Source of the DNA: Methylobacter tundripaludum
GTDB lineage: Bacteria; Pseudomonadota; Gammaproteobacteria; Methylococcales; Methylomonadaceae
Assembly (NCBI RefSeq): GCF_002934365.1
Contig: NZ_PTIY01000001.1
Coordinates: 372,001 to 436,000, forward strand
DNA: 64,000 bases
Direction of reading: 5' to 3'
Position numbers and translations under genes: made by a program. The notes below the pieces were generated by a model that was not told the DNA's origin, ran no database searches, and saw only the letters and a list, made by a program, of their open reading frames with translations. Every line of letters starts with the position of its first letter. Positions within the stretch are counted from its first letter, which is position 1. This document shows, in pieces, positions 25,169 through 33,367 of this stretch.

Positions 25169-25306
25169 AAAGTGACTCTTATTAAAAATAAAAACTGCGG
25201 CTATCTTATTACAGTTTTTACCGGCTTGCTTGACTAAAATAGCCCAACAATTGATGCTTTCCATGTTGGATTTCGTTTCCTCCCTACCGTGCTTCCAGTC
25301 TTACAT

Positions 25307-25501
25307 TCACAGCGAACCCGATTGACATGGCCGCCCTGGCTTGGTTAAGCCAACCTTTCGCCCAACCATTACTTCAATCTGTTTCTTAAAACGCTCGTTA
25401 CCCAGCGGCGTACCAGAGCACAAGCTTGCCCGAATAATATCCAACTCATTAGCATCATCGGCTTGTCTTTCAAACAATCCGCGATACACAGCCTGCCGCG
25501 C
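25307..25501 (-). pseudogene. C-terminal remnant of a REP-associated (Y1) transposase
   Basis: The frame encodes ARQAVYRGLFERQ, then IIRASLCSGTPLGNERFKKQIE and GRKVGLTKPGRP. This matches the conserved end of RAYT/IS200-like transposases (YR.LF...I..A...G..LG..RF...IE...GR....GRP). A stop codon two codons upstream (TAG at 25,505-25,507) and the lack of the HUH catalytic domain show it is a decayed fragment. It sits immediately upstream of the dnd-like operon. Confidence 0.7.
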
Positions 25502-25611
25502 TCCCTATGCCATAGAGTATTTACACGGTCCCAATTTAAGTTTCAAGCCAAAAGCGCCCTGCCTAAAATGCGATTAAATTAACAATCCCTAAAATATCTG
25601 CTGAATTGTTT

Positions 25612-25617
25612 TATAAT
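25612..25617 (+). promoter_or_regulatory. TATAAT -10 box just before dndC
   Basis: A perfect TATAAT lies 6 nt before the dndC ATG and no ribosome site is visible between them. Transcription would begin at or next to the A of ATG, giving a leaderless message. No good -35 element is seen at the ideal distance. Confidence 0.45.
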
Positions 25618-25623
25618 CGCCCC

Positions 25624-26772
25624 ATGAACACAAATTTAGCGCTATCGACCACATCATCTCTTGAGCAGACTGAGTCTCATATTGAGTACTCTCGCGCCCT
25701 ACTTAAATCAAATTTTCTGGCAGATTCCAGGCCGTGGGTTGTTGCCTATTCGGGAGGAAAGGATTCCACGCTGGTTTTGCAACTGGTTTACGAATTGTTA
25801 TTATCCCTCGATTCAACACAGCGTAAGCCGGTCTACATTGTGTCGTCCGATACGAGGGTAGAAGCACCCAACATCGAATCCTATTTGGAAGAAAGTATTG
25901 CGGCGATTAATAGACATGCCGCCACCTCCGATTTGCCTATCCATGCAGAACTGATACAGCCCGACGTTGACCAAGGATTTTGGGGTAACTTGATCGGCAA
26001 AGGCTATCCGCCGCCTACACGCTGGTTTCGATGGTGTACTTCAAAAATGAAAATTAAGCCGATTAAATCGGCCATTGAAGATGTGATTCGAAAACACGGC
26101 AGTGTCATACTGCTATTAGGCACCCGCACCGATGAAAGCATCAGCCGCGGACAGAGCATGAATGCCCGCGAATTAAGCAGCCGTATGCTTAATCCGCATC
26201 ATGAAATACCCAATGCGTTGGTATTGTCACCCATTTCCAAATGGACTAGCGATGAGGTTTGGGAATATCTGTTCATGCATAACCCGCCCCCGTGGGGCGA
26301 AAGCCACGATTTTATGTTAGATTTATACCGTCAGGCGAACGGCGGCGAATGTCCGGTTGTAGTTGACCTCAATACACCGTCTTGTGGCGGCAGCCGGTTT
26401 GGCTGCTGGACATGTACAGTCGTCAAAACCGATAAATCCATGGAAAGTTTCATCGAAAACGGCGAAGCCTGGATGAAGCCGCTTAATGAATACCGCAATT
26501 GGCTTAAAGACATCCGCGAAGATGAAGCGCGCCGCAGCCCGGTCAGGCGCGATGGCCGTGAAGGACAAGGGCCGTTTATCGCAGCAACCCGCAAAGAAAT
26601 GCTCGAAAAATTGCTGGAAACGGAACAACAAGTGGATAAACGGCTGATTTCCGATCAAGAAATCATGTATATCCAGTCCGTCTGGTCTAACGACTTTGAC
26701 GTTTTCGATAGTGCGCTGCGTATTGCCGAACAATACGGGCGGGAACCTTGGCTAAGTACAGACCATGAATGA
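25624..26772 (+). CDS. dndC: DndC-like DNA phosphorothioation sulfurtransferase (PAPS reductase family)
   Basis: DndC uses an ATP-pyrophosphatase fold and a 4Fe-4S cluster to activate the DNA backbone for sulfur insertion. The 382-residue protein has the PP-loop SGGKDST at 43-49, SSDTRVEAP at 75-82, PTRWFRWCTSKMKIKP at 131-146 and GTRTDESISRGQSM. The cluster cysteines are probably Cys138, Cys254, Cys261 and Cys264 (SRFGCWTCT). It is shorter than the roughly 500-residue DndC of classical systems, lacking a C-terminal extension. First gene of a six-gene operon, probably leaderless. No dndA (cysteine desulfurase) or dndB is present in the window, so sulfur may come from a housekeeping desulfurase. 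Confidence 0.9.
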   Translation: MNTNLALSTTSSLEQTESHIEYSRALLKSNFLADSRPWVVAYSGGKDSTLVLQLVYELLLSLDSTQRKPVYIVSSDTRVEAPNIESYLEESIAAINRHAATSDLPIHAELIQPDVDQGFWGNLIGKGYPPPTRWFRWCTSKMKIKPIKSAIEDVIRKHGSVILLLGTRTDESISRGQSMNARELSSRMLNPHHEIPNALVLSPISKWTSDEVWEYLFMHNPPPWGESHDFMLDLYRQANGGECPVVVDLNTPSCGGSRFGCWTCTVVKTDKSMESFIENGEAWMKPLNEYRNWLKDIREDEARRSPVRRDGREGQGPFIAATRKEMLEKLLETEQQVDKRLISDQEIMYIQSVWSNDFDVFDSALRIAEQYGREPWLSTDHE

Positions 26773-26959
26773 ATACACGGAATTATTGCTGTCATTGGCT
26801 AAAGAGCACGATGTCCCGGATGAACTGGCCAACTCATTAAGCGAGTTAATGCAAAAATATCCGGACCTGAGTCAATGGGGCAGTCAAGCGGAATTGAGGA
26901 ACAAACTTAAAATGCTTACCGAGTCTGCTTTTAAGGACAAATTGATAATGACGGAATGA
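26765..26959 (+). CDS. Small conserved-looking protein between dndC and dndD
   Basis: The 64-residue acidic helical protein starts MNEYTELLLSLAKEHDVPD and continues through a helix with ELANSLSELMQKYPDLSQWG. It overlaps dndC by 8 nt and dndD by 4 nt, so it is embedded in a translationally coupled run, which argues that it is real. I do not recognise a domain. Small proteins at this place in modification operons may bind the DndC or DndD subunits, but that is inference. Confidence 0.75.
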   Translation: MNEYTELLLSLAKEHDVPDELANSLSELMQKYPDLSQWGSQAELRNKLKMLTESAFKDKLIMTE

Positions 26960-28992
26960 TTTTTAAATCCATCACTTTAAACAACCTGTTTTCCTATTAC
27001 GGAACGCATGAATTCGATTTCAGCCCGGAGCCGGGCGGGCAGCGGAACATCGTCATTATCATGGGCCGCAACGGTTTCGGAAAAACCAGTTTTCTTAATA
27101 GTCTCAAATTACTGTTCGGCGGTGTCACCAAGGATTTGACGGCAAGCATCCAGCGGGGATCAACAACTTCAGTAAAGAATTTTGTGTTGGGGCATAAGGA
27201 TTGGTGGGGAATTCTGAATCAAAAAGCCCGAAGCGAAAACATCATGCAATGCAGCATTGAAGCGGTTTTGCTTGACCAAGCCCATCAGGAAATCCGCATC
27301 ACGCGTCGTTGGGATTTAAGCAACGACAACCACTCGGATCAGTTGGTGATCAATGTCCCGCGCAAAGCACCGCTCAAAGGGGAGGACGCCCAGCAATATT
27401 TATCCGAGTTATTGCCGCTGGACTTTATCCCTTTCTTTTTTTTCGATACCGAAGAAATTGGCTATTTGGCCGAGGCTAACCGCAACCAAACGATCGAGAA
27501 AATGGAATTGTTGCTGAATATCCGGCCGGCTGAAAATATAAAAATCGTGGCTAAGGAGCTACGCCGGGAATATCAAAAGAACGCCATGGATGCCCAGGCA
27601 AGGGAAGCCCATACCAAGGCGGAACATCGGCTCGAAAAATTGCAACTGCATTTGGAATCCTTGCGCCAAGCCCAGCAAGAGGTCGATGCCGACATAGAAG
27701 CCCAGGAAGACGCCCTGAGCGATATACGCCGCAAAATGCGCATGTTGACCGGCACCGGGTCTGTGGAAAAAAACGCACGCCTGGAAGAAAACAAGCGCCA
27801 GCTCGAAAAACAACAGGCCGAAGTCTTATCGGAAATTTCCGCGGCATTTGAACATGATGCCTTTTTGCGCTTGAATACCGACTTAGCCCAACAAGTTATG
27901 CATGTCGCCGAGGCCAGTGCTTCCAGCAAAAGCAATGAGATATCCGAGCTGCTCGGTTCGATTACCGATGAATTGATCGAAGTCTTTGACAGGCCGCCTT
28001 ATCCCCCCACTCGCCTGACTACCGCACAAGTTGGCTTTTATCAAAAACGTATCGCTGCATTAATGAAAGCCCGCGATATTCGTAATGACGAAGAACAGGC
28101 TTTGTTTGTTTTGGATACTGGCAAGGCGCGAAAGCTGGCGAACTTTTTTGCCGCTTACCAGCCAGAGCAAAAACCGGCCAATGGGCTTTATCAGCGTCTA
28201 AATACTGCGATTTCCGCCGCCCAGGATATGGCAAAAATAGACGATGAATTACAAGCGGTCAGCCAACTTTCCGATGAAAATAAAGTGGATCTGGAAAAAC
28301 TGCAATATGCCGAAGAATCAATACAAAATCATCTGTTGAAGCAAAAGGTTGAATCGGAAAAACTGACCCAGGAACAAAAAGTAACGGGGGCTGAGATCAC
28401 TAAAGCCGAGAGTACCATCAACGCCTTGCAGGCCGAGGTGAAAAACGCCCAAAATGCGCGCGACCGCGTGACCTTGCTGGATAATATGCTGGCATTATTG
28501 GAAGCCTATAAACAGAAAATCAAAGCCATAAAACGGGATAGCGTGGAGCAGGCTTTTAACCGCCATTTGCATGAATTATTGGATTCCAACCAACTTATCG
28601 CCGAGGTAAAAATCAGCCACAATTTTGAATTGAGCTATCACGGCAAATCCGGAGAAACCGTGCCAATGAGCAGCCTGTCCGCTGGCATGAAGCAGCTTTG
28701 CGCAACCGCCCTTTTGTGGTCCTTAAAAGAGGCGGCTGACCGGCAATTGCCGGTTGTCATCGATACGCCCTTAGGCCGTATCGATAAACAACATCAGGAC
28801 AATTTGTTGGAAAAGTATTACCCCAATGCAGGGGCTCAGGTCATTATATTGCCGACCGATTCTGAACTGGACGAAAGAAAGCGGGCTCTGCTTGCTCCCT
28901 ATATTCACCGGGAATTCCTGCTGCACAATGCTGACGGTGACAGCACCACTGTAGAGTTGATTCCTACAAGCCCGGATATAAACTATGGCTAA
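26956..28992 (+). CDS. dndD: DndD-like SMC/Rad50-type ATPase
   Basis: DndD is an ABC-type ATPase with a coiled-coil, thought to work with DndC and DndE on the DNA. The 678-residue protein has Walker A GRNGFGKTS at 37-45, then PFFFFDTEEIGYLAEANR, then long coiled-coil segments (about 195-300 and 380-530, rich in Glu/Lys/Gln heptads). It ends with the ABC signature LSAGMKQL and Walker B PVVIDTPLGRID. Its N-terminus MIFKSITLNNLFSYYGTHEF is typical of DndD. ATG overlaps the previous stop as ATGA. Confidence 0.9.
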   Translation: MIFKSITLNNLFSYYGTHEFDFSPEPGGQRNIVIIMGRNGFGKTSFLNSLKLLFGGVTKDLTASIQRGSTTSVKNFVLGHKDWWGILNQKARSENIMQCSIEAVLLDQAHQEIRITRRWDLSNDNHSDQLVINVPRKAPLKGEDAQQYLSELLPLDFIPFFFFDTEEIGYLAEANRNQTIEKMELLLNIRPAENIKIVAKELRREYQKNAMDAQAREAHTKAEHRLEKLQLHLESLRQAQQEVDADIEAQEDALSDIRRKMRMLTGTGSVEKNARLEENKRQLEKQQAEVLSEISAAFEHDAFLRLNTDLAQQVMHVAEASASSKSNEISELLGSITDELIEVFDRPPYPPTRLTTAQVGFYQKRIAALMKARDIRNDEEQALFVLDTGKARKLANFFAAYQPEQKPANGLYQRLNTAISAAQDMAKIDDELQAVSQLSDENKVDLEKLQYAEESIQNHLLKQKVESEKLTQEQKVTGAEITKAESTINALQAEVKNAQNARDRVTLLDNMLALLEAYKQKIKAIKRDSVEQAFNRHLHELLDSNQLIAEVKISHNFELSYHGKSGETVPMSSLSAGMKQLCATALLWSLKEAADRQLPVVIDTPLGRIDKQHQDNLLEKYYPNAGAQVIILPTDSELDERKRALLAPYIHREFLLHNADGDSTTVELIPTSPDINYG

Positions 28993-30481
28993 CATTTCCA
29001 TTAGCGAGGAAGATGAAAATATTGTCCTGCAAGTCAGGAGCTTAGGGTTTCGTACACCCGAAGCGGCGAAATACGGGGTATTGCGTCTAGCTTTGGCAAA
29101 ATCCTTAAAGATAGAAACACCACCCGAATCGGGTTTGGATACTATCGAGAAAAAAGGCAGGGACTACGATTTCCGGGAAGTCACCGGCGTTGGTAAATCG
29201 GAAAATGATAAAGGGCTACATGATTTTGATGATGCGATACGCGCTTTATTAAGCGTTTATCATCAAGAAGATTTATTTGCGTCGGATCAACGTTATAAAC
29301 TCTTTTTACAACGCCATATCCGTCGCGGCCTGCGGGAAATACGCACCAGTTGGAGTTCCGGTCATAACTTTATCAATTGGTTGCGTGAAGAATTATTTCA
29401 GGATTTAAAGCCTGATAACTCTCAACTTGCAGCAGCAACCGAGACTGACTTATTGCTGAATGCATTGGTTGAAATTGGTGTGCATAGCGAAGTCCGCGAT
29501 ATAAAACAGGGCATCCGATTAGACCGCTACGCCCTTTATCTAGCCAACATCAACCACCTCGATAACCTGAAAAAAGGTTTGGCTAAGTTATCTTTTCGCT
29601 TGGGACTTCCTGAAAATGCGATTACCTTATCCGGCAGTAAAGAAGCGGGGGTTGCCAATCTGGATATTCCCCGTTCCCCTGAACATTGGAAAATCGTTTC
29701 TCCTGCCAGAATGAATGAATGGGCAGATCTTCCACATAAGGAAAAATTACCGGTATGGCTGGGACAAACCGTTCTAGGCGAAAATTTCAGCATGGATTTA
29801 GCGGAAGCCCCTCATGTTTTATTGGCAGGTGCAACAGGGAGCGGTAAGACCGTCTGCTTGCATAGTTTGATTTGCTCGTTACTTAGAACTCAAAGCCGAG
29901 AAAAGCTTCAGTTTGCGTTGATTGATCCTAAAGGCACTGAATTGAATGTTTACGCAAAATTACCGGACTTATTCGGTGGCTTTGTTGCTAAATCTACCTT
30001 GGAAGCAGCCAATATGTTAGATGAGCTGGTTGAGACGATGGAGGCCAGGAACCGCTTATTCGTAGAAATGGGGGTACGTGATATTGATGAGGCTTCCAAA
30101 AAATCGGCCTTACCCCGCATTGTGGTAGTGGTTGAAGAGTTGGCCGATTTGCTGATGCAATCGCGGGAACTGGAAACCCCATTGGTACGGCTCGCTCAAA
30201 AAGCGCGCTCTACCGGAATACATTTGGTGTTGGCCACACAAAGGCCGGATGCTGTAACGTTCAGCGGGCTTTTGCGTAGCAATATTCCGGTCAGGATTGC
30301 TTTAAGAGTACAAAAACACACGGAATCTTCAATCATTCTTGACCAAAAAGGAGCGGAAGCGTTACTGGGTAGAGGCGATATGCTAATAAAGCTGACGGAT
30401 CAACCGGAACCGGTACGAGTACATGGAGCAAGAGTCGGCGATAGCGAGATTGCTCTGGCTATCCAAAAATTTTGTCGATAA
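28985..30481 (+). CDS. DndE-like N-terminus fused to an FtsK/HerA-type DNA translocase
   Basis: Residues about 5-42 (SEEDENIVLQVRSLGFRT, then a helix ending LRLALAKSL) resemble the small DndE protein, which binds nicked DNA. A central helical region (80-210) follows. The C-terminal half is an FtsK-type motor: Walker A GATGSGKT at 282-289, LIDPKGTELNVY, Walker B VVVEELADLL at 381-390 and ATQRPD at 418-422. The aspartate that usually precedes the Walker B glutamate is itself Glu. No FtsK membrane helices and no gamma domain are seen. It overlaps dndD by 8 nt. I infer a DNA-translocating part of the modification/restriction complex, comparable in role to HerA-like DptH. The DndE match is short and less certain than the motor. 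Confidence 0.82.
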   Translation: MANISISEEDENIVLQVRSLGFRTPEAAKYGVLRLALAKSLKIETPPESGLDTIEKKGRDYDFREVTGVGKSENDKGLHDFDDAIRALLSVYHQEDLFASDQRYKLFLQRHIRRGLREIRTSWSSGHNFINWLREELFQDLKPDNSQLAAATETDLLLNALVEIGVHSEVRDIKQGIRLDRYALYLANINHLDNLKKGLAKLSFRLGLPENAITLSGSKEAGVANLDIPRSPEHWKIVSPARMNEWADLPHKEKLPVWLGQTVLGENFSMDLAEAPHVLLAGATGSGKTVCLHSLICSLLRTQSREKLQFALIDPKGTELNVYAKLPDLFGGFVAKSTLEAANMLDELVETMEARNRLFVEMGVRDIDEASKKSALPRIVVVVEELADLLMQSRELETPLVRLAQKARSTGIHLVLATQRPDAVTFSGLLRSNIPVRIALRVQKHTESSIILDQKGAEALLGRGDMLIKLTDQPEPVRVHGARVGDSEIALAIQKFCR

Positions 30482-30511
30482 ACGTAAAATTTTCTTAAAG
30501 GTGGATACATT

Positions 30512-31675
30512 ATGGATGAATTAAGAATATATGAGTTTCGGCCTTTATTTCTGACCTTAGACCGCATCGGCCCGTTTAGAAATATTCACGAAATAGACTT
30601 CACCGACAGCAAGCATCATCCTTGTAATTTCTATATGGTGGTTTCTGCCAATGGAATGGGTAAAACCACGGCATTGGAGATATTTTCCTGCCTGATGAAT
30701 TTATTGGGTAAAAAGGAAATTTCCGCTTGCGGGCATGAAGATCTGGATAAAAAAGACGGGCGGGCGCAATTGGATTTTTGGGTGCGATTGCATTGGCAAG
30801 GCCGGGATATGTCCATCGTATTATCGGTGCTTGCCGGAACAATTGGCGAGGAGGTTTTTCTTAAACCTTGGACAGACGATTTATTGACTATGCATAGTGC
30901 GGAAAGCTGGCATCGTTTGGGTTTTCGTAGCCCTGTTCCAGGGCGTTACGAGGCTATTATGTCCCGTAAAGACGATTTGCTATTGGACTTATCTTCAACA
31001 ATTCGAGCAAGCCTGGATGGTGCCCCTGAAGAGCATTTTCTACAACCGGGTTTTCATTTACCGACTGCGCTCTATTTTTCAGCCTATCGGGATATTCCCG
31101 GCATCAGTGACGACAATAACGGAAGCGGACGCAATATTAGTCAGCCGTCGCATTGGAATTATCGGCCTCTGTATGCTTTCGATGCACATAGCACTTTATG
31201 GCGCGACTCGTTGGATAATCTGGTTATTTGGCTTAAATGGCTGGAGAATGGCTCTTTCGAAGCCGCACAGAAACTTATAGACGAACAAGTTTTTGTCGGT
31301 ACTCCGAAACGTTTAAAAGGTGTGCGAAAAGTACCGCCTGAAGCTCAGGTTGATGCCGGTGATGGTGAAATACACGGACTGGATAGATTGAGTAGCGGTG
31401 AAAAAAGCTTGGTTCATTTATTTCTCCGAATAGGGGCGCATGGTACTGCCAATACCATTATCCTAATCGATGAAATCGACGCGCACCTACATATCCGCTG
31501 GCAGCATCGTCTTTATAATGCATTGGAAAAACTGGCGAAAGATCACCCTGGCTTTACTGTAATTATGACGACCCATTCGACTGAAATACTAAGACGTTTT
31601 ACTGCGTCGATGAATATTGAGAAAGAGGGTTTATATTTCGGTGGTGATTTAATCGAACAACAGGAATTAAACTGA
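30512..31675 (+). CDS. AriA-like AAA ATPase (PARIS type)
   Basis: A 387-residue ABC/AAA15-type ATPase: Walker A ANGMGKTT at 46-53, signature LSSGEKSLVHLF from 293, Walker B IILIDEIDAHLHIRWQ with Glu321, and a switch histidine in MTTHSTEILRRF. This layout and size, followed directly by a DUF4435 protein, match AriA of the PARIS anti-phage system. AriA assembles as a scaffold that holds and releases the AriB nuclease. A ribosome site (AAAGGTGG) precedes the ATG. The gap from the FtsK fusion is 30 nt, so it belongs to the dnd-like operon. Another possibility is a general OLD-like ATPase. Confidence 0.78.
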   Translation: MDELRIYEFRPLFLTLDRIGPFRNIHEIDFTDSKHHPCNFYMVVSANGMGKTTALEIFSCLMNLLGKKEISACGHEDLDKKDGRAQLDFWVRLHWQGRDMSIVLSVLAGTIGEEVFLKPWTDDLLTMHSAESWHRLGFRSPVPGRYEAIMSRKDDLLLDLSSTIRASLDGAPEEHFLQPGFHLPTALYFSAYRDIPGISDDNNGSGRNISQPSHWNYRPLYAFDAHSTLWRDSLDNLVIWLKWLENGSFEAAQKLIDEQVFVGTPKRLKGVRKVPPEAQVDAGDGEIHGLDRLSSGEKSLVHLFLRIGAHGTANTIILIDEIDAHLHIRWQHRLYNALEKLAKDHPGFTVIMTTHSTEILRRFTASMNIEKEGLYFGGDLIEQQELN

Positions 31676-31693
31676 ACTAAACAGGGAAATATT

Positions 31694-32587
31694 ATGAGTA
31701 GCTTTAAAAAGATAGCACCTGATTTTATCGGCAGTAAGTATGAAGGTGGTATTAAAGTATTTTTGGAGTCAACTGAAGATGTGCGTATTTTTAGCGATCA
31801 TTGGTTCAGTGATTATCAAGATAAAATCAGTTTTGAAAGTGCGGGAAAAGACGGTAAAAAAAGTAGCGGTGGATGCACTGCTGTGTTGCGCAAAGTTAGG
31901 GAAGCTGAAAGCCAGCAATTAACTGCATACGGCATTGTAGATAGGGATACGCTTTTGAAAGATAATAAACAGGATGTTTTTTGGGAAACTGATGATACCA
32001 AGTTTCATGCGGCCTCACCTTATGGAGATAATATTCATGTGCTTCGCCGTTGGGAAATGGAAAATTATTTATTAAAGCCGGAGGCTTTTAAATCAGAACT
32101 CCGGTGCAAAACACTTAATCGTTTAGAACCAGAAATTACGGCTAAAACGCTGTTAAATCATGAGGATGATTTAATTAAATTGACGACATTGAGTACTATT
32201 TTAGCTAATAAGGAAAGCTCTGTTAAATTTACATCTGAAGGTTTTGGCAGTGCCAATATAGGTGAAGATTTGCATAATAAAATCAATAACTACCTTTCAA
32301 CTTATGGAATGACGCTTGAATCAAGTGAATTTTTGGAAGATATGGCTAAAATTTTAGCATTCGCTAACAATGAACAAAGTCCAGATGCCCGATGGGATAA
32401 GCTTTCAAGAATATTAGATGGAAAAAGAGCTTTGTACAAATTTTGTTCAATCTTTAATAAAGAATATGGGCTTAAAGGATTTCAATTTGCAGATGAAGTA
32501 AAAGGCTCTCTCGCTGATAGGATCGCATCCAAAAGAGAACTGCTTGACGAAGAGCTGTGTGACACGATTGAACGGTTCTCAAAATAG
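31694..32587 (+). CDS. DUF4435 TOPRIM-like nuclease (AriB type)
   Basis: The 297-residue protein shows a TOPRIM layout: Glu25 in VFLESTEDVRIF, the DxD pair Asp83/Asp85 in YGIVDRDTLL, and Glu121 in LRRWEMENYLL. This is the DUF4435 pattern of AriB, the PARIS effector that becomes an RNase (tRNA-cutting) or nuclease when released. It starts 18 nt after the ATPase with GGGA upstream. It is clearly more AT-rich than its neighbours, a sign of separate acquisition. A terminator hairpin closes the operon. The family call is supported by context and motifs; the actual substrate is unknown. Confidence 0.78.
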   Translation: MSSFKKIAPDFIGSKYEGGIKVFLESTEDVRIFSDHWFSDYQDKISFESAGKDGKKSSGGCTAVLRKVREAESQQLTAYGIVDRDTLLKDNKQDVFWETDDTKFHAASPYGDNIHVLRRWEMENYLLKPEAFKSELRCKTLNRLEPEITAKTLLNHEDDLIKLTTLSTILANKESSVKFTSEGFGSANIGEDLHNKINNYLSTYGMTLESSEFLEDMAKILAFANNEQSPDARWDKLSRILDGKRALYKFCSIFNKEYGLKGFQFADEVKGSLADRIASKRELLDEELCDTIERFSK

Positions 32588-32612
32588 CGTAGAAAACCAC
32601 TGATGTTTTAAC

Positions 32613-32640
32613 GAGCCGTAAGAACACATTCTCACGGCTC
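32613..32640. terminator. Terminator between the dnd-like operon and kdpE
   Basis: GAGCCGT and ACGGCTC, extended by AGAA/TTCT with one mismatch, form a hairpin. It lies between convergent genes and may serve both directions. Confidence 0.6.
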
Positions 32641-32641
32641 A

Positions 32642-33367
32642 TTATGCAAGATATTTACCCACACGCTCATCCCTACACGCCAACCGATAACCCACGCCCG
32701 CTTCGGTCAACAAATAACGCGGCTGATTGGGATCTACCTCTAGTTTCCGGCGCAATTGTCCCATGTAAATCCGCACATAGTGGGCGTGCTCCACGTAGGC
32801 GGGCCCCCAAACATCCAGCAACAGCTGCCGGTGCGTCAATACCTTGCCCGCATGATGGATCAACACGGTCAGCAATCGGTATTCGATCGGAGTCAGATGA
32901 ATTTCCCGGTCGCCGATATGCACGCTGCGACGGGATAAATCGACCTGCAACTCGCCGACGCGAAACAGCGTTTCGACGCTATCTCCTGTAAGTTGCGCGG
33001 CGTGGCGCAGCGATACGCGGATGCGCGCCAGCAGCTCGCCGATACTGAACGGTTTGGTCAGGTAATCGTCTGCCCCGGCATCCAGCGCGTCAATCTTGTT
33101 GATTTCCTGGATTCTGGCCGACAGCACGATGATCGGCACCGCGGACCACTCGCGAACCTTGCGGATCACCGCTATGCCGTCCATGCCCGGCAAGCCCAGG
33201 TCGAGAATGACCAGCTCGGGCTTGCGGGTGCCTATTTCCACCACGCCCCGCTCGCCGGTTCCCGCCTCAACCACCTGGAATCCCTGCACACTCAGGCTGG
33301 TGCGCAAAAATCGGCGGATTTGCGGGTCATCCTCGATAACCACAATGACGGGTTTGGCGTTACTCAT
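32642..33367 (-). CDS. kdpE: KdpE response regulator
   Basis: OmpR-family regulator that activates kdpFABC at low potassium. The receiver domain has the acidic pair in VVIEDDPQIRR, phospho-acceptor Asp in LVILDLGLPGMDG and Lys in YLTKPF. The C-terminal winged helix contains LTPIEYRLLTVLIHHAGKVLTHRQLLLDVWG and YVRIYMGQLRRKLE. 241 residues. Overlaps kdpD by 8 nt. Confidence 0.95.
   Translation of the reverse strand: MSNAKPVIVVIEDDPQIRRFLRTSLSVQGFQVVEAGTGERGVVEIGTRKPELVILDLGLPGMDGIAVIRKVREWSAVPIIVLSARIQEINKIDALDAGADDYLTKPFSIGELLARIRVSLRHAAQLTGDSVETLFRVGELQVDLSRRSVHIGDREIHLTPIEYRLLTVLIHHAGKVLTHRQLLLDVWGPAYVEHAHYVRIYMGQLRRKLEVDPNQPRYLLTEAGVGYRLACRDERVGKYLA

What the first reader, a model, noticed from the sequence alone, without database searches (positions are those of the whole stretch)
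25624..32587. Operon joining dnd-type phosphorothioation genes, an FtsK-like motor and a PARIS-like AriA/AriB pair
Six genes in one coupled run: dndC-like, small protein, dndD-like, DndE-like/FtsK fusion, AAA ATPase, DUF4435 TOPRIM. Overlaps of 8, 4 and 8 nt, then gaps of 30 and 18 nt, and a closing terminator, argue for one system. dndA and dndB are absent and no DndFGH-type restriction genes are present. The ATPase/TOPRIM pair could be the effector that acts when modification is missing or attacked. This looks like an unfamiliar hybrid of DNA modification and abortive-infection machinery.
Basis: partly seen in the sequence, partly recalled or inferred. Interest (0 to 1): 0.87.

Follow-up and report, generated by a model that had tools for sequence, protein, structure and literature searches.

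The report
Sulfur-DNA genes joined to nuclease switch
A methane-oxidising bacterium carries a compact six-gene unit that joins genes for putting sulfur into the DNA backbone, a DNA-pumping motor and an ATPase-nuclease pair resembling a known phage-triggered shutdown switch; the same unit recurs in distant bacteria, so it looks like a real but untested variant of sulfur-based phage defence.

Summary
The six genes are real, with the stated overlaps and gaps: dndC, a Sp-DndD small protein, a dndD-type ATPase, a DndE-FtsK fusion, an OLD/AriA/PtuA-type ABC ATPase and a divergent DUF4435/AriB-type TOPRIM protein. The order is no local accident. Among 23 distinct loci of this ATPase (the window included; Methylomonadaceae, Magnetococcales and other Pseudomonadota, two Rhizobiales plasmids) the TOPRIM gene follows in 23 of 23 and DndE-FtsK precedes in 19 of 23. 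In a 398-genome sample this DndD type occurs in 11 genomes and the ATPase in 11, both in 10. In Mesorhizobium amorphae the five genes after dndC follow a complete desulfurase-C-D-E set; one relative has the last four genes and no DndC. I read it as a phosphorothioation module with a dedicated PARIS-like effector. DndE-FtsK fusions are published, and PARIS-like pairs are published for BREX; my searches showed no text joining such a pair to Dnd. The AriA label is not specific, and both structure models were too poor to use. Sulfur in DNA, trigger and function are untested.

The parts
25624..26772 (+). dndC: PP-loop (PAPS-reductase-like) sulfurtransferase, 382 aa; SGGKDS motif at residue 43, cysteines at 138, 243, 254, 261, 264
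   Evidence: TIGR03183 370 bits over cut-off 290; PADLOC DndC 424 bits; motifs
26765..26959 (+). Sp-DndD small protein, 64 aa; in L032 it is the C-terminal part of the DndC ORF
   Evidence: PF20306 46.5 bits over cut-off 27.2; L032 5119-6429
26956..28992 (+). DndD-type ABC ATPase with coiled coil, 678 aa; no CxC motif
   Evidence: TIGR03185 286 bits over cut-off 245.9; best PADLOC model is labelled PbeC, 472 bits; Walker A, signature and Walker B motifs, no C.C
28985..30481 (+). DndE-like N-terminal region fused to an FtsK/HerA-type motor, 498 aa
   Evidence: PF01580 156 bits; PF08870 DndE 21.6 bits (below cut-off 25) on residues 16-122; Walker A/B
30512..31675 (+). OLD/AriA/PtuA-type ABC ATPase, 387 aa; Walker A, LSSGEK signature, Walker B and TTHS present
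   Evidence: PF13304 58 bits; PADLOC AriA, PtuA and mad3 alike; motifs
31694..32587 (+). DUF4435/AriB-type TOPRIM protein, 297 aa; LESTED (E25), VDRD at 82, EMENYL at 121
   Evidence: PF14491 27.1 bits vs 27; PADLOC AriB 2e-8; E25, D29, D83, E121, E123, N124 invariant in 16 aligned relatives; hhalign to standalone AriB E 4e-6
25241..32669 (.). accessory insert: in relative G401 (L213) the same flanks are 36 bp apart
   Evidence: window 25240 and 32670 map to L213 14467 and 14504

Best explanation
A composite, patchily distributed defence system. DndC (sulfur from a housekeeping cysteine desulfurase) with DndD and the DndE-FtsK motor recognises sites on DNA and either installs phosphorothioate or checks for it while translocating. 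The downstream ATPase-TOPRIM pair is its dedicated effector, built like PARIS: the ATPase is a sensor that holds a metal-dependent TOPRIM nuclease inactive and frees it when the scanning complex meets unmodified DNA or is blocked by a phage inhibitor, after which the nuclease cleaves RNA or DNA and stops the infected cell. Shown here: gene content, fixed order, recurrence, parallel divergence, intact catalytic motifs. Inferred: sulfur in DNA, motor action, sensing, nuclease substrate, cell arrest.
For: Curated-model matches for DndC and DndD. Same order at diverged sequence in M. tundripaludum, a Methylobacter MAG, a Magnetococcales MAG and others. Pair together in 23 of 23 loci and behind DndE-FtsK in 19 of 23. 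In a 398-genome sample DndD type and ATPase co-occur in 10 of the 12 genomes that have either. Distance matrices of five of the genes correlate at r 0.935-0.975, 0 of 5000 permutations as high. Three of the four exceptions nest inside Dnd-linked groups of the TOPRIM tree, so linkage is probably older than its loss there. AriB-type match in 15 of 16; TOPRIM glutamate and first aspartate invariant. Precedent: a pair of this kind inside BREX loci (PMC12839542, PMC9009780, passages).
Against: Four of 23 loci have the pair without DndDE-FtsK: two beside an HNH gene and a shortened DndC, one beside a type I-like modification locus, one alone. One locus has DndC-DndD-DndE:FtsK with no ATPase in the 1.66 kb left on the contig. 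G636 has the last four genes but no DndC in its genome and none was seen upstream in G732, so sulfur writing may not be needed. Burkholderia, Aureimonas and R. phaseoli plasmids have dndC-SP-dndD-dndE:FtsK without the pair. The ATPase is not specifically AriA. In M. amorphae the second aspartate of the TOPRIM motif is a glutamate. The genomes that carry the unit are clustered in few families, so the counts are not independent, and correlated distances may partly reflect host phylogeny. Both AlphaFold models were poor (pLDDT 54.6 and 46.8) and the fold search found nothing at E 0.001. No PDB sequence match for the TOPRIM profile.
Confidence: 0.62

Rival explanations
1. Back-up guard: genes 1-4 form a complete modification system and the last two are an independent PARIS-like abortive system that senses phage anti-restriction proteins, kept next to modification loci because it guards them, with no direct contact to the sulfur mark.
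For: The pair sits beside a type I-like methylase/specificity locus with a PtuA-like ATPase in L121 and alone in L147; three plasmids have dndC-SP-dndD-dndE:FtsK without it; PARIS-like pairs occur in BREX (PMC12839542) and removal of ATPase or DUF4435 in StySA left methylation intact (PMC9009780).
Against: Fixed position behind this one DndD/FtsK type in 19 of 23 loci and near-complete co-occurrence of the two subfamilies are tighter than a freely moving guard would show.
Confidence: 0.35
2. Reader-effector block: the five genes after dndC (small protein, DndD type, DndE-FtsK, ATPase, TOPRIM) are a restriction arm, comparable to PbeABCD, that reads sulfur marks written by another Dnd set; dndC here is a remnant or a partial writer.
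For: Mesorhizobium amorphae has a full desulfurase-C-D-E set followed by these five genes and Rhizobium RCAM05350 the same in a frameshifted record; G636 has four of them without DndC; the best PADLOC model of the window's DndD is labelled PbeC.
Against: The window genome has a single DndD, so there would be no separate writer there; dndC is intact, under purifying selection (dN/dS 0.087) and in L032 is one ORF with the small protein; the DndD lacks the CxC motif of the Pbe ATPase.
Confidence: 0.25
3. Chance neighbours: a dnd island and an unrelated abortive-infection pair that landed side by side.
For: The insertion site is variable in the genus: empty in G401 and carrying other genes in some relatives.
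Against: Same arrangement in distant lineages; at the empty site all six genes are missing together.
Confidence: 0.03

Closest known systems
Dnd modification systems with a DndE-FtsK/HerA fusion next to a DndD-related ABC ATPase (PMC10853773)
   Same: DndC, DndD and a DndE-FtsK fusion in one operon; small proteins are reported for related CxC systems
   Different: the sections and passages that I read describe no ATPase-TOPRIM pair with them; their nuclease list is HKD, HNH, REase, URI, HEPN, PIN; supplements could not be read
PARIS (AriA-AriB)
   Same: adjacent OLD-type ABC ATPase and DUF4435 TOPRIM protein with E and DxD motifs
   Different: the TOPRIM match is marginal and the ATPase equally close to PtuA and mad3; tied to Dnd genes; trigger and tRNA cleavage unknown
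BREX with embedded ATPase-DUF4435 pair (StySA; PMC9009780, PMC12839542)
   Same: a PARIS-like pair inside a DNA-modification defence locus
   Different: methylation-based BREX core instead of Dnd
PbeABCD / CxC ABC ATPase systems
   Same: small protein, DndD-like ATPase, DndE; can stand beside dndCDEA
   Different: no CxC motif; no HKD-helicase is named in the annotation of the two plasmid loci (not searched by profile); motor fused to DndE and TOPRIM effector instead
DndFGH
   Same: FtsK/HerA motor in a sulfur-linked restriction arm
   Different: no DndF-type match in this genome, though with a silent control; motor is on DndE, nuclease is TOPRIM

Membership tests
Dnd phosphorothioation system | DndC sulfurtransferase | tested here: met
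   TIGR03183 370 bits, cut-off 290
Dnd phosphorothioation system | DndD ATPase | tested here: met
   TIGR03185 286 bits, cut-off 245.9; a profile of this subtype separates 11 genomes (356 bits or more for their best match) from 8 others (246 bits or less)
Dnd phosphorothioation system | DndE | tested here: inconclusive
   PF08870 21.6 bits, cut-off 25, on the N-terminus of the FtsK protein
Dnd phosphorothioation system | linked cysteine desulfurase DndA | tested here: not met
   none in the operon; genome matches stay below the cut-off; only about a third of Dnd taxa have DndA (PMC10853773)
Dnd phosphorothioation system | sulfur in the DNA backbone | not testable with these tools
   needs iodine cleavage or LC-MS
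Dnd subset with DndE-FtsK fusion | DndE fused to HerA/FtsK beside DndD | tested here: met
   FtsK part certain, DndE part sub-threshold; alignable over its length with the plasmid proteins; described in PMC10853773; HerA/FtsK clade not tested
PbeABCD / CxC system | CxC Zn-hook in the ATPase | tested here: not met
   no C.C in the 678-aa protein, although PADLOC's best label is PbeC
PARIS | AriB-type DUF4435 TOPRIM nuclease | tested here: met
   AriB model 2e-8 in the window protein, 15 of 16 relatives; DUF4435 27.1 vs 27; weak
PARIS | AriA ATPase | tested here: inconclusive
   AriA, PtuA, mad3 and others match all 15 members alike; with AriA model PDLC04164 the window protein has 3.1e-15 and the best of six standalone ones 7.6e-59; profile comparison aligns only the C-terminal ATPase part
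PARIS | hexameric sensor, trigger release, tRNA cleavage | not testable with these tools
   models too poor to use
Septu (PtuAB) | HNH partner next to the ATPase | tested here: not met
   the gene after the ATPase is the TOPRIM homologue in 23 of 23 loci
DndFGH | DndF/G/H genes | tested here: inconclusive
   no match to TIGR03238, control silent; DndG and DndH models not searched

The most novel reading that the evidence does not exclude
The block small protein - DndD type - DndE:FtsK - ABC ATPase - TOPRIM is a self-contained sulfur-reading immune module: an FtsK motor runs along DNA, the DndE domain checks for phosphorothioate, and missing marks (not a phage protein) make the PARIS-type ATPase release a nuclease. 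It would be a further kind of sulfur-gated restriction arm besides DndFGH and the Pbe and Ssp types, with a PARIS-like pair gated by DNA modification status.
Probability: 0.25. Interest if true: 0.82.

Novelty: new variant of a known kind. Interest (0 to 1): 0.62.

Why it matters
Dnd systems often lack a convincing restriction arm, and PMC10853773 argues that DndFGH is frequently uncoupled from the modification genes. A fixed, recurrent coupling of a Dnd module to one ATPase-TOPRIM subfamily gives a concrete candidate effector, and asks directly whether PARIS-like switches can be gated by DNA modification instead of by phage anti-restriction proteins. The relatives with parts missing (no pair, no DndC, pair beside a type I-like locus) are natural tests of which genes need each other.

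Tried and rejected
Single-protein search of DndE-FtsK in 369 Gammaproteobacteria: 15 genomes match at E 1e-40; the 14 other than the own one match only from residue 147 or later, in frames of 712-870 aa, and I took them as ordinary FtsK and not as fusions. Plasmids, DndE-FtsK: 1011 records match, 3 over 80% of the query; 40 rows seen, five opened. Plasmids, ATPase: 4 records, the best two behind DndE-FtsK. Window TOPRIM: none. M. amorphae TOPRIM and ATPase: 2 records each, itself and the Rhizobium. Plasmids, DndD: 33 records, two further opened: Ruegeria has dndBCDE plus a desulfurase and no FtsK or pair, Arthrobacter has no annotation. Phages, DndE-FtsK: 254 records, 2 covering 80% or more; ten rows seen, none followed up. 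Viral contigs: 127 pattern matches, none a relative of the ATPase family. Genome-contig scan: 203 relatives, best 80 kept, found through two short peptide patterns only, so recall is limited; 4 have the ATPase at E 1e-40 or better. I read ORFs around 4 of the 76 weaker ones (L034, L035, L036, L038) and judged them generic OLD-type ATPases; all 76 were searched with the Dnd, ATPase and TOPRIM proteins and of these only L073 showed a match to the Dnd proteins, to the FtsK part. PDB sequence searches: the ATPase profile finds retron ATPases, UvrA, PtuA, AriA and others; the TOPRIM profile none up to E 10; DndD and DndC single-sequence searches none. Both structure models came out poor; the PDB fold search of the TOPRIM model gave no match at E 0.001, and the ATPase model was not searched. 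Repeats around the operon: short two-copy pairs. Chance neighbours rejected because the order recurs.

L019 is a frameshifted record and L140 has a stop in its ATPase gene; both were counted from pieces. The permutation test left out L140, L141, L143 and L019, and its DndC set includes the two shortened DndC of L126 and L128.
Full report
WHAT IS THERE. The window (G000:C1:372001-436000) holds six co-directional ORFs at the coordinates given, with overlaps of 8, 4 and 8 nt and gaps of 30 and 18 nt. Profile scans identify DndC (TIGR03183, over cut-off), the Pfam family Sp-DndD, DndD (TIGR03185, over cut-off), an FtsK/SpoIIIE motor with a sub-threshold DndE match on its N-terminus, an AAA_21/AAA_15 ATPase and a DUF4435 protein just at its cut-off. 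PADLOC calls the last two AriA/AriB-like. The motifs that I looked for are present in all five larger proteins. Against Methylobacter tundripaludum SV96 dN/dS is 0.047-0.106 for the first five genes and 0.31 for the TOPRIM gene.

GENOME CONTEXT. This is the only DndD found in the genome and the only DndC at E 1e-20. DndB is not found. No DndA passes its cut-off; the two best cysteine desulfurases score 358 and 340 bits, and IscS is reported to substitute for DndA (PMC10853773, passages). A DndF-type model found nothing, with a silent control. The operon lies between a 146-aa ORF and a two-gene regulator/kinase pair that I read as kdpE/kdpD (recalled, no call). In relative G401 the same flanks are 36 bp apart, so the whole unit is an accessory insert. 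I read eight relatives at this site; both flanks were found in five of them (L206, L207, L209, L210, L213), and four of those carry other genes there.

RECURRENCE. tblastn of the window proteins finds the six-gene order in M. tundripaludum (L030), a Methylobacter MAG (L031) and a Magnetococcales MAG (L032, where the small protein is part of the DndC ORF). In Mesorhizobium amorphae plasmid pM0123d a desulfurase-dndC-dndD-dndE set is followed by small protein, a second DndD, DndE-FtsK, ATPase and a 292-aa protein with a weak match to the TOPRIM protein (E 5e-5); a Rhizobium plasmid has the same in a frameshifted record. Profile searches with the ATPase alignment gave 11 of 237 genomes of the family and 11 of 398 of a phylum sample, each count including the own genome. 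After removing duplicates I have 23 distinct loci, the window included. The TOPRIM gene follows the ATPase in 23 of 23. DndE-FtsK precedes it in 19 of 23. In 18 of the 18 of these that can be judged, this DndD type precedes DndE-FtsK (L125 starts inside DndE-FtsK; L141, L143 and L019 are judged from partial or frameshifted genes; L124 has an insertion with IS21-like genes, named by eye, between the two). Of the 19, DndC lies upstream in 15; it is missing in G636 (none in that genome) and was not seen upstream in G732 (L181); L125 and L141 end at contig ends, although the L125 genome has a DndC on another contig.

THE EXCEPTIONS. L121: ATPase-TOPRIM beside a methylase with an HsdR-type N-terminus, a specificity subunit and a PtuA-like ATPase. 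L126 and L128: a shortened DndC ORF (273 and 281 aa), an HNH_2 protein and, in L126, a Cap4-type nuclease, then the pair; for L126 the search shows a stop inside a longer DndC match. L147: the pair alone, with no DndC in the genome. In a tree of the TOPRIM proteins L121 groups with L122 and L123 (100/99) and L126 and L128 group with L124, L125 and L127 (100/100), all of these Dnd-linked, so in these three the Dnd core was probably lost or exchanged. Some branches in that tree are long and the tool warns that their joins may be false. The converse exception is G750: DndC, DndD and DndE-FtsK with no ATPase in the last 1.66 kb of its contig. Plasmids of Burkholderia, Aureimonas and R. phaseoli carry dndC, small protein, dndD and DndE-FtsK without the pair; the Burkholderia DndD is more distant from the window's (125 bits against 233 for the second DndD of M. 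amorphae).

CO-OCCURRENCE. In the 398-genome sample the DndD alignment finds 19 genomes at E 1e-20: 11 of this subtype (best match 356 bits or more, contig-end fragments included) and 8 others at 246 bits or less. Ten of the 11 subtype genomes also have the ATPase, and ten of the 11 ATPase genomes have the subtype. Five of these ten belong to one family (f215), so they are not independent. None of the eight other DndD loci shows DndE-FtsK, ATPase or TOPRIM among the ORFs listed. Pairwise distance matrices of DndC, DndD, DndE-FtsK, ATPase and TOPRIM correlate at r 0.935-0.975 over 13-19 loci, 0 of 5000 permutations as high. That is expected of genes inherited together; it does not exclude that host relatedness contributes.

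WHAT THE PAIR IS. In 16 TOPRIM relatives E25, D29, G80, D83, E121, E123 and N124 are invariant and R84, D85 nearly so; M. amorphae has a glutamate in place of the second aspartate. AriB matches 15 of 16; apart from the AriAB fusion model (14) only one other PADLOC family matches, once. Standalone pairs in six related genomes (L200-L205), taken from an AriB-model search (10 of 81 genomes, the own unit among them; ORFs), give an AriB profile that aligns to this family over 104 columns, probability 87, E 4e-6. The ATPase matches AriA, PtuA, mad3 and others alike, and aligns to the standalone AriA profile only over its C-terminal part. Structure models were poor and are not used as evidence.

HOW IT PROBABLY WORKS. 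From known families: DndC with DndD and DndE makes phosphorothioate; FtsK/HerA domains pump DNA; AriA holds AriB until a phage protein binds, then AriB cleaves tRNA (PMC12409363, passages). I infer that the DndE-FtsK protein couples site recognition to translocation and that the ATPase-TOPRIM pair is the effector of the unit. Whether it is triggered by missing marks or by an attack on the modification complex cannot be told from sequence. The M. amorphae arrangement and G636 favour a block that can act apart from DndC; the intact, selected dndC and its single ORF with the small protein in L032 favour a unit with its own writer.

COMPARISON AND NOVELTY. PMC10853773 (abstract, sections 14, 16, 17 and 24, and passages) reports DndE-FtsK fusions beside DndD and lists HKD, HNH, REase, URI, HEPN and PIN nucleases at Dnd loci; its two uses of the word Toprim are in a passage on primases and in a reference title. 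PMC12839542 (passages) reports PARIS-like pairs in BREX loci and reads them as a countermeasure to phage anti-restriction; PMC9009780 (passages) shows an ATPase-DUF4435 pair in a Salmonella BREX locus whose removal did not affect methylation; PMC12707154 (passages) treats Dnd and PARIS in separate sections. The searches, some with capped listings and read as listings except for the papers named here, showed me no paper that describes a Dnd operon with such a pair; supplements and most subscription papers could not be searched. I therefore rate it a new variant of a known kind: a Dnd subtype with a dedicated PARIS-like effector.

Noticed in passing
L121 1614-9408: The ATPase-TOPRIM pair sits beside a type I-like methylase with HsdR-type N-terminus, a specificity subunit and a PtuA-like ATPase, suggesting the pair can move between modification systems.
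   Followed up: partly
L126 881-7781 and L128 6517-10620: Shortened DndC ORF followed by an HNH_2 protein and the pair; DndD and DndE-FtsK are gone. In L126 a Cap4-type nuclease and another ATPase-like ORF lie between.
   Followed up: partly
L032 5119-6429; L146 5771-7240: The Sp-DndD small protein is part of the DndC ORF (L146 by a 24-bit match); DndC ORFs of L142, L148 and L172 are similarly long (442-447 aa) but were not inspected for it.
   Followed up: partly
L145 (G636): DndD type, DndE-FtsK, ATPase and TOPRIM without any DndC in a genome rated 100% complete.
   Followed up: partly
window 25241-32669 and L206, L207, L209, L210, L213: Variable site between the same flanks in the genus: empty in G401, toxin-antitoxin-like, transporter-like or other genes in four others (names by eye only).
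   Followed up: partly
L203 1331-10459: A standalone AriA-AriB-like pair lies between large genes that look like BREX pglX and pglZ (by eye only).
   Followed up: no
window 31694-32587: The TOPRIM gene evolves faster than the other five (dN/dS 0.31 against M. tundripaludum, 0.16 against L031), as might be expected of a protein in conflict with phages.
   Followed up: no
L018 13595-14812: A gene annotated as DNA phosphorothioation-associated DGQHR protein 1 lies downstream on the other strand of the M. amorphae locus.
   Followed up: no
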